DNA from: Butyricicoccus sp. OM04-18BH
GTDB lineage: Bacteria > Bacillota > Clostridia > Oscillospirales > Butyricicoccaceae
Length of the DNA: 64,000 nucleotides
NCBI RefSeq assembly: GCF_003481705.1
Contig: NZ_QULN01000003.1
Location: forward strand, 186,001-250,000
Direction: 5' to 3'
Below the pieces are notes generated by a model. That model saw only the letters and a program-made list of their open reading frames with translations, was not told the DNA's origin and searched no databases. This document shows, piece after piece, positions 7,835-61,643 of this stretch (position 1 is its first letter; the number at the start of each line of letters is the position of its first letter). Position numbers and translations under genes: made by a program.

Positions 7835-8137
7835 GCGGACTTACGTCCGCCATAATAATGATGCCGCTGCTTGCAGCGGCCAACCTTAGATGCAGCCGCG
7901 CCGTAAAGGCGTCGGCGAGCATCTCGGCCCGCCCGCAGGCGACCGTGCGCGAAAGCGCACGGCATGCAATCGTGCTGCTTCGCAGCACACAAAAAGGCCC
8001 AGCTCTGCCGGGTCTTTTTGTACCCCGACCCAGCGCCCGTGGGGCGCGACATTCGGGTATCGAAGGGCGGTTTCAAGGGAACCGTCCTTCGTATATAGGG
8101 GGCTTCTGAAGCCCCCTATAAGCCGCGCAAGCGGCTT
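7835..8137. repeat. Hairpin array A (dnaB-rplI gap)
   Basis: The gap holds consecutive inverted repeats and no gene: 7835-7850 (6 bp, loop TTAC), 7863-7880 (8 bp, loop TT), 7943-7962 (8 bp, loop GAAA), 7972-7988 (7 bp, loop TTC), 7989-8021 (ACAAAAAGG arm around CCCAGCTCTGCCGGG), 8033-8047 (6 bp, loop GTG), 8061-8091 (12-bp arms, one mismatch), 8094-8120 (13 bp perfect, loop of one T) and 8120-8137 (7 bp, loop GCAA). Hardly any unpaired sequence separates the last four. Function is unknown. Confidence 0.8.
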
Positions 8138-16404: not shown

Positions 16405-16540
16405 TTTACCTCTGTTCCTCCTGTGCAGTCTGTGATGCTGCCATATAATTTATCTGTTATCTGTCGTGTGCACTGCTTATCTGTCCGGAAATTCGTAAGC
16501 AAGATTTCCCGCACCCCCGCGCGGCAGCGTGCATATAATA

Positions 16541-16703
16541 GAACCTGCGGAGCAGGTTCATAAAAAGTCGGGGCGTGTACCTGACTTTTTATCCCTTGAG
16601 AGAGAAAAAAGTTTCTGAACAGGAACTTTTTTTCCGTCCGTGTTTTGCGGCGCCCCGCGCTGTCAGAACACCGCTTGTCGGCCAAACGAAGTTTGGCGAC
16701 AGC
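16541..16703. repeat. Hairpin array B (hprK-PHP gap)
   Basis: Consecutive inverted repeats: 16541-16559 (GAACCTGC, loop GGA), 16560-16592 (ATAAAAAGTC arms, 13-nt loop), 16605-16632 (AAAAAAGTT arms) and 16681-16697 (GCCAAAC-GAA-GTTTGGC), the last enclosed by GCTGTC/GACAGC. The end touches the hprK stop. The rest of the gap, 16405-16540, holds no gene I can see; it must contain any PHP promoter, but none stands out. Confidence 0.7.
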
Positions 16704-19689: not shown

Positions 19690-19985
19690 ACCCCCGTTTA
19701 GACGCGCGACCGCAGGGAGTCGCGGCTTAAAGGAGGGTTTGGGGGAGTCAAGAGGGGGCAAGGGAACCATACGGTGCCCTTGCCCCCTTTTGCCCCCGCC
19801 GTGGGCACGGCGTCCCCCGGCCGCCGAAGACGGCCACTGTGCATGCTCACTTTGAGCGTGAATCTCGCCTCCAGCGGCGCGCCGCTGTATCGGCGCAAGG
19901 TCTGCCATCAGCAGACGGTAAAAAAACGGCACGGCCGACGGAACAGCGGAAAGGCTTACCCTCTGCTGAGGGATATAAAGTAAAA
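19690..19985. repeat. Long intergenic repeat, right copy (inverted)
   Basis: The reverse complement of this segment aligns along its length to 19164-19500: both begin with a T-run and an ACCGTC/CCCTCAGCAGAGGG motif, continue through the GCCGATACAGCGG block, and end with the CGCGACTCCC...CGCGTCTAAA block. Together with the left copy it forms an 820-bp inverted-repeat structure between azlD and the cobalamin operon end. Confidence 0.75.
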
Positions 19986-54502: not shown

Positions 54503-55567
54503 ATGCTGCAGATCACAACACAACGTACCACTACTCCTAAGGCTAAGCCGGACGAGGGCAATCTCGGTTTCGGCGTGCATTATACCGATCATATGCTGAT
54601 CATCGACCACGATGAGGAAAAGGGCTGGCACGACGCCCGCATCGTACCGTATCAGCCGCTCGAGCTCGATCCTGCAGCGATGGTTTTCCATTACGCAATG
54701 GAGTCCTTTGAGGGTCTGAAGGCCTACCGCACCCCGGACGGCTCCATCCAGCTGTTCCGTCCCGACAAGAACGCACAGCGCATGATCAACACCAACCATC
54801 GTATGTGCCTGCCGAGCCTGCCGGTAGAGGATTTCGTTCAGGCAGTCAAGGCGATCGTCGAGTTCGATCAGGACTGGGTTCCGCACGCTGAGGGCACCAG
54901 CCTTTACATCCGTCCGTTCGTCATCGCGACCGAGCCGCATCTGGGCGTTCGCACCTCCCGCACCCACAAGTTCATCATCGTATGCTCTCCGGTCGGCGCT
55001 TACTACTCCACCGGCATCAATCCGGTAAAGATCTTCGTCGAGGACGAGTACACCCGTGCATGCCCGGGCGGCACCGGCTTCACCAAGTGCGGCGGCAACT
55101 ACGCGGCATCCCTGATCTCTCAGGTCAAGGCACACGATCTCGGCTACGAGCAGACCCTGTGGCTCGACGGCGTTGAGCACAAGTATGTCGAGGAAGTCGG
55201 CTCCATGAACTGCTTCTTCAAGATCGACGGCACGGTCTACACCGCTCCGACCGTCGGCACCGTTCTGCCGGGCGTTACCCGCATGAGCTGCATCGAGCTG
55301 CTCAAGAAGTGGGGCATTCCGGTATCCGAGGAGCGTCTGCCGATCGCTGACGTCATGAAGGCTTCGCACGACGGCAAGCTGGAAGAGGTATTCGGCACCG
55401 GTACCGCAGCAGTCATCTCCCCGGTCGGCGAACTGCGCTACGAGGGCGATGTTGCTCACATCAATGGCGGCGAGATCGGCGAGATCACCCACAAGCTGTA
55501 CAACACCCTGACCGGCATTCAGTGGGGCAAGCTGCCCGACGATATGGGCTGGACGGTAAAGATTTAA
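54503..55567 (+). CDS. ilvE: Branched-chain amino acid aminotransferase
   Basis: Fold-type IV PLP enzyme that interconverts leucine, isoleucine and valine with their 2-oxo acids. AMESFEGLKAYRTPDG, LYIRPFVIATEPHLGVR, the catalytic lysine segment GFTKCGGNYAASLISQ and GTGTAAVISPVGEL are typical of the eukaryote-like BCAT subgroup; 354 residues. AGAG upstream is a modest ribosome site. It could work with the AzlCD exporter encoded elsewhere in the window. Confidence 0.94.
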   Translation: MLQITTQRTTTPKAKPDEGNLGFGVHYTDHMLIIDHDEEKGWHDARIVPYQPLELDPAAMVFHYAMESFEGLKAYRTPDGSIQLFRPDKNAQRMINTNHRMCLPSLPVEDFVQAVKAIVEFDQDWVPHAEGTSLYIRPFVIATEPHLGVRTSRTHKFIIVCSPVGAYYSTGINPVKIFVEDEYTRACPGGTGFTKCGGNYAASLISQVKAHDLGYEQTLWLDGVEHKYVEEVGSMNCFFKIDGTVYTAPTVGTVLPGVTRMSCIELLKKWGIPVSEERLPIADVMKASHDGKLEEVFGTGTAAVISPVGELRYEGDVAHINGGEIGEITHKLYNTLTGIQWGKLPDDMGWTVKI

Positions 55568-55572
55568 GACTT

Positions 55573-56141
55573 CGATTCAAAGGCAAAGCCTTTGAATCGA
55601 GAAGGCTGTGCCGAACGAAGTTTGGACACAGCCTAACGCCCCTCAGCGCGTCGATAAATCGGCACACTGAGGGGCGTCTTATCCTGTCGAAAAGCTAACG
55701 CTTTTCCGACAAGATGTGTTTTGACTTCGCAAAACACAGACGTCCGAAAGTTCCCATTCGGAAACTTTCTCCCTCTGGGAGTATAAAAACCGAGGTACAC
55801 GCCCCCGGTTTTTATGAATTTGCAAGCAAATTCTATTTAATACGTGCGCGAAGCGCACGGGAAAGGCACGCCGACGGCGTGCCTTTTCGCGCCCCTTTGG
55901 GGCGCTTTCCCCTGCCGTATTTCGGCAAAGCCGAAACAGGCAGGACAGGCGCTCCGCAGAGCGCCGCATCAAATTCCCCATAAAAGTCCAGCTCTGCCGG
56001 ACTTTTATTCCACTGCCCGCGCCGCGGCGGCGCGGCCGCCCCTGCCGTGCAGGGGCGAGGGGGGTATCCCCTCCGGTTTCTCCGGAACCGGAGGGGTATC
56101 CAGGGGGGACAGAGTCCCCCCTGGAATTCGCGTCAGCGAAT
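55573..56141. repeat. Hairpin array C (ilvE to flavodoxin-like gene)
   Basis: The longest array: about 18 hairpins in 570 bp with almost no unpaired sequence. Examples: 55573-55599 (12 bp, loop AAA), 55603-55634, 55636-55677 (11 bp), 55685-55711, 55715-55738 (9 bp), 55746-55769, 55785-55813, 55816-55833 (8 bp, loop AA), 55844-55858 (6 bp, loop GAA), 55862-55886 (11 bp, loop GAC), 55889-55905 (7 bp, loop TTT), 55948-55965 (7 bp), 55980-56008 (10 bp) and 56100-56124 (11 bp, loop AGA). The last, 56126-56141, overlaps the end of the next gene. No coding capacity. Confidence 0.85.
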
Positions 56142-56759
56142 AAAGTTTGTCATCGTGCGGTGTCCGGTTTCGGGCGGCTCAATGCCTGCCTTGTCGATGA
56201 CCTTGAGCATCCATGCAATGTTGCGGCCGAGCTTTTCGATGACCTCGACACCCTCGGTGTCCTGCATGACTTCGCCCTTTTCCGCACCGTGAACCGCATT
56301 CCAGTAGTCCGACGTCACGAGCACCATCTCCATCGTGTTGATCGTGCCGAGCAGCTGCTGATAGGTCTCCATGCCGCCCGAACGGCGCAGCGTGCACAGC
56401 GCCGCACCTACCTTGTGATGCAGCCTGTTCTCACCGCAGCCTGCCGCGAGGATCAGACGGTCGAGCACGCACTTCATGCCGCCCGCAATTCCGCCATGGT
56501 ATACCGGCGAGGCCAGCACGATGCCGTCTGCCTCAATACACTTCTCGATGATCGCATTCACGCCGTCGTCATCCTGCACGCAGCGCAGCGTGCCGTTGTC
56601 AAGGCAGTGATAGCATGCCATACACGGATGTACCTTCGCGCCCGGCTGGCAGACCTCGAACTCGATGCCCTCGCTTTCGAGCACCTTGCCCAGTACGTCC
56701 AGCATCTGTGCGCAGTTTCCGCCCTTTCGCGGCGAACCATTGATCGCTACAACCTTCAT
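56133..56759 (-). CDS. Flavodoxin-family NAD(P)H-dependent reductase
   Basis: 208 residues beginning VVAINGSPRKGGNCAQML, the FMN phosphate-binding loop of iron-sulfur flavoproteins and FMN reductases. CMACYHCLDNGTLRC gives a cysteine cluster like that of the ISF family, and LASPVYHGGIAGGMKCVLDR is the FMN ring loop. Substrate unknown. Its stop codon is inside the last hairpin of array C. Confidence 0.85.
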   Translation of the reverse strand: MKVVAINGSPRKGGNCAQMLDVLGKVLESEGIEFEVCQPGAKVHPCMACYHCLDNGTLRCVQDDDGVNAIIEKCIEADGIVLASPVYHGGIAGGMKCVLDRLILAAGCGENRLHHKVGAALCTLRRSGGMETYQQLLGTINTMEMVLVTSDYWNAVHGAEKGEVMQDTEGVEVIEKLGRNIAWMLKVIDKAGIEPPETGHRTMTNFIR

Positions 56760-56807
56760 TTTTTCTTGTCCTCCTGTTTTTACCCGGCGCGTCCGCCGGT
56801 TTCTCTG

Positions 56808-57659
56808 TTATTTCAAATGCGCCGTCTGCTCCATGCGGTACAGCCGCATGACGACAAGCGTGTGATTGAGCTGCGGCCCCATCAGCAGGATGATGCTGAC
56901 GAGATACAGCCAGATCATGAGCACGATGACCGTCGCGAGCGAGCCGTAAAGCACGGAATACCGCGCCATATTGTCCACATAGAACGAAAAGCACCACGAC
57001 ACGAGCACCCATGCCACCAGCGAAAACAGCGCCCCCGGCCAGACCTCGCGGAACCCGAGATGCAGGTTCGGGACGATGCGGTTGAACAACATGAGGAACG
57101 CGAATACGATGGCGATCATCATCCAGAAGCCCGTGCCGCGCGCCGCCTCAAGGATCGGTGCAGGGATCGGCAGCGCCTGCGGCAGCAGACGCAGCAGCAT
57201 GCGTCCGGCGACGGCAAGCACAAAGCTGCACACGACGGTCAGCAGAAAGCCGGCCGTCATCGCGAACGACAGCAGAATATCGAGCACCGCGCGGCGGTGT
57301 ACCTCGACGCGGTAGATGCCGTCTACCGTGCGCATGATCGAACGCACTGCCCGCGACAGAAAATACAGCGTCAGCAGCGTCCCGATGAGCAGCGGACTGA
57401 ACGATGGCGTCGCCGTGATCTGCTCAAAGTACGACAGGATGAGCTCCTGCAGGCTTTTCGGCATCAGCTCGAACACCGGCCGAAAATCCTCGATCGAAAT
57501 GCCGAGCCGCGCGACGAGCGCATTGACAAACATCAGAAGCGGGAGCAGGGAAAACAGCAGAAAATACGACAAGGCCGCCGCCGCCTGCGGAATGCCGTCC
57601 GAAAAAAAGCGGAGTACCATGCGCCGCACCAGATAGACCAGCCGATTCTGTCCGTTCAA
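56808..57659 (-). CDS. YihY/BrkB-family membrane protein
   Basis: 283 residues with six hydrophobic segments and the family pattern AAALSYFLLFSLLPLLMFVNA near the N-terminus (split AAALSYFLLFSL / LPLLMFV) and LWLYLVSIILLMGPQLN near the end. Once called ribonuclease BN; the current view is a transporter-like membrane protein of unknown function. The start is TTG at 57659 with GGGGGAG upstream. Confidence 0.87.
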   Translation of the reverse strand: MNGQNRLVYLVRRMVLRFFSDGIPQAAAALSYFLLFSLLPLLMFVNALVARLGISIEDFRPVFELMPKSLQELILSYFEQITATPSFSPLLIGTLLTLYFLSRAVRSIMRTVDGIYRVEVHRRAVLDILLSFAMTAGFLLTVVCSFVLAVAGRMLLRLLPQALPIPAPILEAARGTGFWMMIAIVFAFLMLFNRIVPNLHLGFREVWPGALFSLVAWVLVSWCFSFYVDNMARYSVLYGSLATVIVLMIWLYLVSIILLMGPQLNHTLVVMRLYRMEQTAHLK

Positions 57660-61407: not shown

Positions 61408-61421
61408 ATCGCTGTCGCTCG

Positions 61422-61643
61422 TATAGGGGGGACGCTGTCCCCCCTATATACCGAACAAGTTCCCATGGAAACTTGTTCGGATACCCCCCTCTCGTTCGCA
61501 CGGCGAACGAGGCTGCGCCGCCACGGCGCAGGCAGTGGTAACAAAGTCCGGCAAAGCTGGACTTTGTTAGAGAACTGCATCTGCCGCGTGCGCGCGGCAG
61601 GCAGGGGCTTGCCCCTGCACCTCTGGGGGAACCAAGGTTCCCC
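61422..61643. repeat. Hairpin array D (iolB-iolD gap)
   Basis: Nine consecutive inverted repeats: 61422-61448 (12 bp, loop GCT), 61451-61480 (14-bp arms with one mismatch), 61491-61511 (9 bp, loop ACG), 61514-61530 (7 bp, loop CCA), 61540-61568 (10 bp plus inner GC pair), 61582-61599 (7 bp, loop TGCG), 61601-61618 (8 bp, loop TT) and 61626-61643 (8 bp, loop AA), then a weaker CCCCTCC/GGGGAG. The gap contains no gene; iolD has its own ribosome site after it. Confidence 0.85.

What the first reader, a model, noticed from the sequence alone, without database searches (positions are those of the whole stretch)
55573..56141. Intergenic space built almost wholly of short perfect hairpins (array C)
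About 18 inverted repeats stand end to end between ilvE and the flavodoxin-like gene, many perfect, with 2-4 nt loops such as AAA, GAA, GAC and AGA. Arms differ in sequence, so this is not a tandem repeat or CRISPR array, and only a few hairpins look like terminators. The chance of so many adjacent perfect hairpins is very low. Possible roles are an RNA processing or stability scaffold, supercoil absorption, nucleoid-protein binding, or a site where palindromes are actively generated.
Basis: seen in the sequence. Interest (0 to 1): 0.8.

Follow-up and report, generated by a model that had tools for sequence, protein, structure and literature searches.

The report
Hairpin arrays from terminator-targeting miniature transposons
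The gap full of hairpins is largely a pile-up of two kinds of small repeated elements found throughout the gut-bacterial genus Agathobaculum; close relatives of these elements jump into the hairpins that end transcription and leave a copy of the whole hairpin on each side, which is a way for a genome to keep making hairpins.

Summary
In detail: 17 non-overlapping hairpins cover 70% of window 55572-56140, against 1.8% on average in shuffles; fold z = -17.6. It is not unique. Array C contains two dispersed multi-hairpin elements: alpha (about 55684-55860, +), downstream of ilvE, and beta (55972-56128, -), just after the stop codon of the flavodoxin-like gene. Beta occurs in 25 of 25 searched genomes of the genus of A. 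butyriciproducens, 3-29 matches each. In two nearly identical genomes (G018, G019), alpha and short-beta elements (about 212-225 nt) differ in presence and sit at terminators, with the whole 24-42 nt hairpin on both sides in 18 of the 19 alpha copies (30 fetched) whose right end was recognised. Their ends match the end of one partial IS1182-family transposase gene, which also abuts a hairpin. The likely origin is structure-targeted miniature transposition that duplicates hairpins. Beta stems change in matched pairs with G-T about as rare as A-C once conserved mismatch columns are set aside (48 vs 52), and four loops are exactly inverted between G018 and G019, as template switching predicts. 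How array C itself was assembled is inferred, not shown.

The parts
54503..55567 (+). ilvE-like aminotransferase gene (upstream gene of the alpha side)
   Evidence: Pfam Aminotran_4
55572..56125 (.). array C: 17 non-overlapping hairpins plus one long imperfect one
55572..55634 (+). two hairpins directly after the ilvE stop; the second (AGGCTGTG...CACAGCCT) resembles the terminal hairpin of alpha elements; probably element debris
   Evidence: resemblance read by eye; one search gives only weak blast pieces
55636..55677 (.). long imperfect hairpin, unassigned
   Evidence: I1, 85% complementary
55684..55860 (+). alpha element (diverged): terminal-type hairpin CTGTCGAAAAG...CTTTTCCGACAAG, GTTCC/GGAAAC hairpin, TACACGC-loop hairpin (55783-55815), TTTGC/GCAAA hairpin (55816-55833)
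   Evidence: nhmmer 55685-55856, 152 bits, this copy seeded the profile; blast to two G002 copies at 85 and 87% over 55684-55847
55862..55947 (.). further hairpins (55862-55886, 55889-55905, 55920-55936) between alpha and beta; 55920-55936 with its outer CTGCC arms resembles the tail seen in L102
   Evidence: resemblance read by eye
55972..56128 (-). beta element, five hairpins H1-H5, reading away from the stop codon of the FMN-reductase gene
   Evidence: covariance model R1, 175.6 bits, E 4.8e-41 (this copy was one of the 20 in the model)
56099..56125 (-). beta H1 (TCCAGGGGGGAC-TCT-GTCCCCCCTGGA)
56068..56096 (-). beta H2, apical GTTCC..GAAAC conserved, outer stem variable
56037..56057 (-). 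beta H3, apical GCACGGC conserved
56017..56035 (-). beta H4
55980..56008 (-). beta H5, terminator-like AAAA..TTTT hairpin with GGC-RRA-GCT apex
56133..56759 (-). NADPH-dependent FMN reductase / flavodoxin-like gene (flv)
   Evidence: Pfam FMN_red
61419..61576 (+). second full beta element, after the KduI/IolB-like gene
   Evidence: R1 173.7 bits (also one of the 20 in the model)
7983..8123 (-). short-type beta (beta2) element
   Evidence: R1 61.6 bits
16526..16701 (-). second alpha element
   Evidence: nhmmer 111 bits

Best explanation
Array C is a cluster of old miniature inverted-repeat elements, chiefly one alpha and one beta element lying tail to tail in the joined 3' regions of two convergent genes. 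The family spreads by structure-targeted transposition: the element inserts at the foot of a palindromic hairpin, usually the intrinsic terminator just after a gene, and the whole hairpin is left on both sides of it (shown for recent alpha and beta2 insertions in G018/G019 and for some alpha copies in A. butyriciproducens). The elements are themselves made of hairpins, so each insertion adds its own hairpins, a copy of the target hairpin and further targets; arrays can grow this way (inferred). A transposase of the IS1182 family is the likely enzyme (matching end and target in one partial copy; inferred). Once in place, stems change in matched pairs and loops flip, most simply by template switching or recombination between copies (pattern shown, mechanism inferred). 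In the window beta lies where the flv terminator lies in relatives, so it may have replaced the terminator (inferred).
For: Array C matches dispersed repeats in 15 of 15 first-searched genomes, and beta in 25 of 25 genus genomes. Of 30 dense arrays in genus sequence not fetched for its arrays (flv loci of relatives, window, 400 kb of G002), 24 overlap or lie within 60 nt of alpha or beta hits (my count; one of the 24 rests on a weak hit, L102:4129). Empty versus occupied sites: at sites 3 and 4 the terminator is single in G018 and stands on both sides of the element in G019; site 1 is alike with one decayed copy. Of 30 fetched TIR copies (58 matches), 29 abut a hairpin on the left; the right end was recognised in 19, and 18 of those have the same hairpin there; random positions 8 of 400. 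Over 74 alpha copies tested, 29 have a repeated flank segment against 1 of 300 random places; a crude symmetry index passes only 14 of the 29, most others are hairpins by eye, L070 is not. These include G002 copies and the flv 3' locus of L002. Beta2: the 4 copies with the ...AGTCTG end recognised have the same hairpin on the other side (ratios 0.82-0.97). Same locus after flv: 11 of 20 relatives have a single-terminator type start 2-15 nt after the stop, L002 has alpha between two terminator copies, L004/L005/L007 have dense arrays, the window has beta. IS1182-family C-terminus in L259 ends in TTCTTTGACAGTCTG followed by a hairpin. Exact loop inversions at 4 orthologous places, control 0 of 2164.
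Against: Array C itself shows no clean duplicated terminator; only its membership in the families is shown. The IS1182 transposase is a 123-aa fragment at a contig edge in G018; none was found in G019, PF13751 was found in 4 of 11 genomes and DUF772 in 12 of 25. Beta1 is oriented and placed too regularly (76 of 88 sense copies start -8 to +13 nt from a stop codon) to be explained by free insertion alone, and its apical sequences are conserved across paralogues, which suggests a function or strong target constraint. Six of 30 dense arrays have no alpha or beta. No same-species relative of the window was available.
Confidence: 0.75

Rival explanations
1. A structured 3'-UTR RNA element: the hairpins act in the mRNA (termination, protection from 3' exonucleases, or slowing ribosome release at the stop codon, as I recall being proposed for E. 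coli REPs), and selection on RNA pairing maintains them.
For: Beta is sense to the upstream gene in 88 of 109 matches (the rest include weak antisense partial hits and probably gene-caller errors) and starts within -8 to +13 nt of the stop in 76 of the 88. Strong covariation: 94.2% of cells paired, 35 of 54 pairs changed on both sides, score 0.429 vs 0.142 shuffled. Apical sequences conserved. Almost no copies in divergent intergenic regions (1 of 109 beta, 1 of 34 alpha, against 126 of 462 intergenic regions of 100 nt or more).
Against: G-T is hardly favoured over A-C in the sense strand: 97 vs 75 of 5,159 cells, and 48 vs 52 of 4,856 after setting aside three more columns with conserved mismatch or doubtful alignment. 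Array hairpins counted directly give 23 vs 27, simple terminators 50 vs 30 (small numbers). Orthologous stems differ mostly by both-sided changes, 240 transition-type and 330 others at 88-93% gene identity. Alpha lies antisense to both neighbours in 9 of 34.
Confidence: 0.35
2. Hairpins are created and kept perfect chiefly by replication template switching (quasipalindrome correction), with transposition a minor contributor.
For: Four exact loop inversions between G018 and G019, one of them in the beta H3 loop in a 3.2-kb stretch with only 10 mismatches; matched-pair stem changes outnumber one-sided mismatches, 570 to 131. Mechanism described in PMC8794818 (abstract and start of introduction seen) and PMC8604942 (listing only).
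Against: Does not explain dispersed copies, shared order of hairpins, terminal repeats, or duplicated terminators. Whole-hairpin swaps (L153/L154) fit recombination between copies better. A strict scan of 322 hairpins found only 2 loop inversions and no compensated arm change.
Confidence: 0.3
3. REP/BIME-like palindromes spread by a RAYT (Y1 HUH) transposase.
For: Dispersed, intergenic, palindromic, mosaic, next to stop codons, like REP/BIME.
Against: PF01797 found in only 2 of 15 genomes and not in G002, which has the most array C hits; recent elements have inverted terminal repeats and lie between copies of the target hairpin.
Confidence: 0.05
4. Chance or assembly artefact.
For: Two contigs end in or beside the hairpin region after flv (L007, L008), so assembly may be difficult there.
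Against: Shuffle tests, recurrence in 25 of 25 genus genomes including G019, whose matches lie on one 4.0-Mb contig.
Confidence: 0.01

Closest known systems
IS1272 / TnSha1 (IS1182 family) of staphylococci: 'stem-loop replacing' transposition (PMC5678879: abstract, passages and part 1 of the Discussion read; PMC4923244: passages read)
   Same: Targets hairpins without sequence consensus, in several cases terminator hairpins; IS1182-family transposase
   Different: IS1272 and TnSha1 remove all or part of the target hairpin and make no target duplication; here the whole hairpin is found on both sides, an outcome (pathway b) that PMC5678879 drew as a possibility. Here the elements are about 212-225 nt without a gene and are made of hairpins
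REP / BIME / REPIN elements (search listings PMC12306157, PMC3733652, PMC2817692; otherwise recalled)
   Same: Dispersed intergenic palindromes in mosaics
   Different: No RAYT in 13 of 15 genomes, terminal inverted repeats, hairpin-length target duplication, conserved apices with changing stems
Pneumococcal BOX / RUP / SPRITE clusters (PMC10969869, passages read)
   Same: Small elements that cluster and insert into one another; SPRITE is terminator-like
   Different: Sequences and target duplications not compared here; recalled as short duplications
Template-switch maintained hairpins (PMC8794818, abstract and start of introduction read)
   Same: Matched-pair stem changes
   Different: Described for RNA genes, not for mobile hairpin arrays

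Membership tests
MITE (miniature inverted-repeat transposable element) | Short, no coding capacity, terminal inverted repeats | tested here: met
   G019 alpha is 212 nt from CAGACTGTCAAA to TTTGACACGCTG; beta2 copies L202, L206, L213 are 225 nt. Met for these copies; coding capacity was not tested beyond their length. In the window copies the ends are decayed: not met cleanly there
MITE (miniature inverted-repeat transposable element) | Target site duplication and empty sites | tested here: met
   Whole terminator hairpin on both sides in 18 of 19 copies with recognised right end; single-terminator sites in G018. Not seen for array C or beta1
IS1182-family derived element | Ends shared with an IS1182-family transposase gene | tested here: inconclusive
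   One partial transposase in G018 (L259; NF033551 positions 394-488, 91 bits, below its cut-off of 270) ends with TTTGACAGTCTG, as the elements do, and abuts a hairpin; no intact copy found in G018 or G019
IS1182-family derived element | Palindromic target (said of some family members in PMC5678879 and PMC4923244) | tested here: met
   29 of 30 copies abut a hairpin; random 8 of 400
IS1272-type stem-loop replacement | Target hairpin removed, no duplication | tested here: not met
   Hairpin on both sides for alpha and beta2; for beta1 replacement of the terminator is possible but no empty/occupied pair was found
REP/BIME with RAYT | Y1 (PF01797) transposase in the genome | tested here: not met
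   Not found in 13 of 15 genomes
Known Rfam RNA family | Match at gathering score | tested here: not met
   0 in the window; best sub-threshold in array C 30.3 bits vs gathering 34.9, L17 leader
Structured RNA under selection for pairing | Covariation with wobble tolerance on the sense strand | tested here: inconclusive
   Covariation strong; little or no G-T excess
CRISPR or tandem repeat array | Identical repeats at regular spacing | tested here: not met

The most novel reading that the evidence does not exclude
A self-feeding palindrome generator: hairpin-made mobile elements that choose DNA hairpins by shape, duplicate the whole target hairpin at each landing, and thereby build intergenic hairpin arrays which are then kept perfectly paired, not by RNA selection but by hairpin-specific template switching and exchange between copies. 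The beta form has become a fixed 3'-end module abutting stop codons across a bacterial genus.
Probability: 0.3. Interest if true: 0.88.

Novelty: new variant of a known kind. Interest (0 to 1): 0.72.

Why it matters
It gives natural evidence, with empty and occupied sites, for whole-hairpin duplication by a structure-targeted transposon, a route that PMC5678879 drew as a possibility. It suggests where dense hairpin arrays come from, shows mobile elements rewriting the 3' ends of genes in a gut genus, and offers a fast-changing set in which selection on RNA pairing can be separated from hairpin-specific DNA mutation, a long-standing question in RNA evolution.

Tried and rejected
Rfam scan at gathering and at relaxed thresholds: nothing useful. 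RAYT search: rejected. First thought that beta was a vertically inherited structured RNA: covariation is strong, but wobble counts and wholesale stem changes between orthologues turned the reading towards DNA-level events. A strict loop-inversion scan found 2 of 322 hairpins and no compensated arm change; the relaxed scan gave 9 exact and 1 near case, of which 4 are distinct orthologous places and the rest repeats of these or matches between paralogous copies (its control tested a slightly different window). IS1182-family genes in G002 (L258, L262) and the transposase-like gene in G016 (L260) have other ends and no flanking hairpin that I could see. Beta2 right-end detection worked in few copies: of 15 loci given, 14 started, 6 right ends were found, 4 of these have the ...AGTCTG end and show the same hairpin (0.82-0.97; three at 0.85 or more), the other two look like false ends without it; in 6 of the 14 the left hairpin picked was the element's own terminal hairpin. 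Literature: no paper with all of hairpin, intergenic and Agathobaculum; no account of whole-hairpin duplication by an IS1182-type MITE in the listings; a search for the REP and stop-codon work I recalled did not list it. The held library lacks most subscription papers.

Full report
Observation. The gap between ilvE (54503-55567, +) and an FMN-reductase/flavodoxin-like gene (56133-56759, -; called flv here) holds 17 non-overlapping hairpins that cover 69.8% of 55572-56140. In 300 dinucleotide shuffles the mean is 1.8% and the maximum 13.4%. The RNA fold has z = -17.6. A long imperfect hairpin at 55636-55677 makes it about 18. No Rfam family matches at its gathering score.

Whose DNA. The flv protein is about 86-92% identical to those of contigs labelled Agathobaculum (and a few labelled Eubacteriales or Butyricicoccus), best 92% to A. 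butyriciproducens DSM 100391. No genome is held for the window, so the genus is inferred.

Not unique. Array C used as a DNA query hits 15 of 15 relative genomes, 2-44 places each. Two units recur: alpha (window 55684-55860, +) and beta (55972-56128, -). Profile searches find 37 alpha and 31 beta stretches in the loci held at that time, weak ones included. The window itself has a second alpha (16526-16701), a second beta (61419-61576) and a short beta, beta2 (7983-8123). A covariance model of beta from 20 copies finds it in 25 of 25 searched genomes of the genus, 3-29 matches each, and, with stricter filters, in 30 of 87 genomes of the family, these 25 and 5 others. Of 30 dense arrays in genus sequence not fetched for its arrays (flv loci of relatives, window, 400 kb of G002), 24 overlap or lie within 60 nt of alpha or beta hits (my count; one rests on a weak hit). 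The six without are L002:6913, L004:11189, L006:9281, L087:7418, L100:18939 and window:19749.

Anatomy of beta. It has five hairpins in fixed order. Apices are conserved (H1 GGGGGAC..GTCCCCC, H2 GTTCC..GAAAC with a conserved C-A mismatch, H3 GCACGGC, H5 GGC-RRA-GCY) while outer stems vary in matched pairs: 35 of 54 pairs with both sides changed, 94.2% of cells paired, covariation 0.429 against 0.142 shuffled and at most 0.114 when slid. Among 109 matches, 88 are sense to the gene before them, and 76 of these start between -8 and +13 nt from the stop codon; the other 12 lie at -49 and at 56-346. The 109 include weak antisense partial hits, and gene calls come from my own simple caller. Divergent intergenic regions hold 1 of 109 beta and 1 of 34 alpha, against 126 of 462 background regions.

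Which level is constrained. Over 5,159 stem cells, G-T mismatches number 97 and A-C 75. Leaving out three more columns with conserved mismatch or doubtful alignment, 48 and 52 of 4,856. In sense-context copies alone it is 40 and 46. Array hairpins counted directly give 23 and 27, simple terminators in the same loci 50 and 30. Many variable positions use all four Watson-Crick pairs. Between orthologous copies whose upstream genes are 88-93% identical (57 pairs of copies, not independent), 570 stem pairs changed on both sides (240 transition-type, 194 flips, 136 other), against 131 cells with a one-sided mismatch and 43 with other mismatches. At 93-97% identity (7 pairs of copies) 68 of 304 cells are already changed on both sides. 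This is not how RNA stems drift through wobble pairs. Some cases are swaps of whole hairpins: L153 and L154 differ almost only in H1-H2. The counts make this test suggestive, not final.

Mobility. Two genus genomes, G018 and G019, were aligned over 257 kb in 23 pieces with 1.25% substitutions. Several gaps in the alignment are element insertions. At site 4, G018 has one terminator (AAAAGCTGCTCAAAGGATTTTGAGCAGCTTTT). G019 has the same terminator, then a 212-nt alpha element from CAGACTGTCAAA to TTTGACACGCTG, then the terminator again. Site 3 is alike, with alpha in the other orientation. Site 1 is alike with one decayed terminator copy. At site 2 the G018 state looks like a deletion rather than an empty site. 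At site 7 a remnant in G018 stands where G019 has beta2. A search for the terminal motif finds 29 places in each of G018 and G019, none in G002, and none for the reversed string. Of the 58, 30 were fetched: 29 abut a hairpin; the right end was recognised in 19, and 18 of these have the same hairpin there, one of them (L278) with its loop inverted; random positions give 8 of 400. Some of the 30 are orthologous pairs (for example L275 and L276 look so), so they are not all independent. Across 74 alpha copies tested in the held loci, 29 have a repeated flank segment against 1 of 300 random places; a crude symmetry index passes 14 of the 29, most of the others are hairpins by eye, L070 is not. These include G002 copies and the flv locus of A. 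butyriciproducens (L002), where alpha sits between two copies of AGGCACAATGAGAAACTCATTGTGCCT. Beta2 behaves the same in the 4 copies with a clear ...AGTCTG end; three measured copies are 225 nt.

The same locus across the genus. After the flv stop, 11 of 20 relatives examined have a first hairpin that starts 2-15 nt downstream and looks like a plain terminator (L003, L009, L010, L011, L013, L015, L016, L024, L047, L051, L052). L002 has alpha between duplicated terminators; L004, L005 and L007 have dense arrays; L001, L006 and L014 have partial versions of these; L012 has no hairpin by the rule used, and L008 is cut by its contig end. Beta in the window thus stands where the terminator stands in most of the others. 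Replacement of the hairpin, as reported for IS1272, would explain this, but I have no empty/occupied pair for beta1.

Enzyme. G018 has a partial transposase at a contig edge (L259) that matches the IS1182 family (NF033551, positions 394-488, 91 bits, cut-off 270). Its right end reads TTCTTTGACAGTCTG and is followed by a hairpin, the same end and kind of target as the miniature elements. None was found in G019, so the activity may be past there or supplied from elsewhere. PF13751 was found in 4 of 11 genomes and DUF772 in 12 of 25. RAYT (PF01797) was not found in 13 of 15 genomes.

Loop flips. Between G018 and G019, four orthologous hairpins differ by exact inversion of the loop: two ordinary terminators, the H1 of a beta2 and the H3 of a beta1; control 0 of 2,164 windows (a stricter scan saw 2 of 322). 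Template switching in hairpins predicts arm correction and spacer inversion (PMC8794818, abstract and start of introduction read; PMC8604942, listing only). Flipping by cruciform processing or by the transposase is not excluded.

Comparison. IS1272 and TnSha1 (IS1182 family) choose hairpins, several of them terminators, and remove all or part of them (PMC5678879, PMC4923244; parts read). PMC5678879 drew a second route in which attack at the 5' feet duplicates the whole stem-loop. The elements here show that outcome. REP/BIME elements are alike in place and look but differ in enzyme and ends. An effect of E. coli REPs near stop codons on translation (Liang 2015) is recalled, not read.

What is shown and what is inferred. 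Shown: the array, its membership in two dispersed families, recent insertions with whole-hairpin duplication, matched-pair stem change, loop flips, and the stop-codon position of beta. Inferred: that array C grew by such insertions, that an IS1182 enzyme does it, that template switching keeps stems perfect, and any function of beta in the mRNA.

Noticed in passing
window 54503-57659; L001-L053: The convergent order ilvE-array-flv of the window is not seen in the 19 relative loci where tblastn found both genes: ilvE lies upstream of flv, on the same strand in 13 and on the opposite strand in 6, so this region has probably been inverted or rearranged more than once.
   Followed up: partly
G018 contig C56:65360-65600 (L242 and neighbour): A different miniature element (ends CCAATGTCATTAAGTTAAG) sits in a terminator with a direct repeat CCTTGGGG, at the place where G019 carries a beta2 (site 9).
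   Followed up: no
L087:7418-7551 (G002): A long perfect-stem hairpin (36 bp by my reading) with no alpha or beta match.
   Followed up: no
G018 C14:15560-15700 versus G019 C1:615870-616040: A GGAATTA tandem repeat differs in copy number between the two genomes (site 5).
   Followed up: no
L092, L087, L096 alpha copies; G018 C12:238750-238960: Some alpha elements carry an extra hairpin or other sequence inside or next to their GAGCATGTATC hairpin, as expected of nested insertions.
   Followed up: partly
L007, L008: Contigs of two assemblies end within or next to the hairpin region after flv, suggesting that such arrays can break assemblies.
   Followed up: no
L043:10766-10891, L049:3600-3808, L033:10642-10834: Dense hairpin stretches also lie after flv in genomes labelled Oscillibacter, Oscillospiraceae and Lachnospiraceae without an alpha or beta match.
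   Followed up: no
window 19749-19887: A dense hairpin stretch without an alpha or beta match.
   Followed up: no
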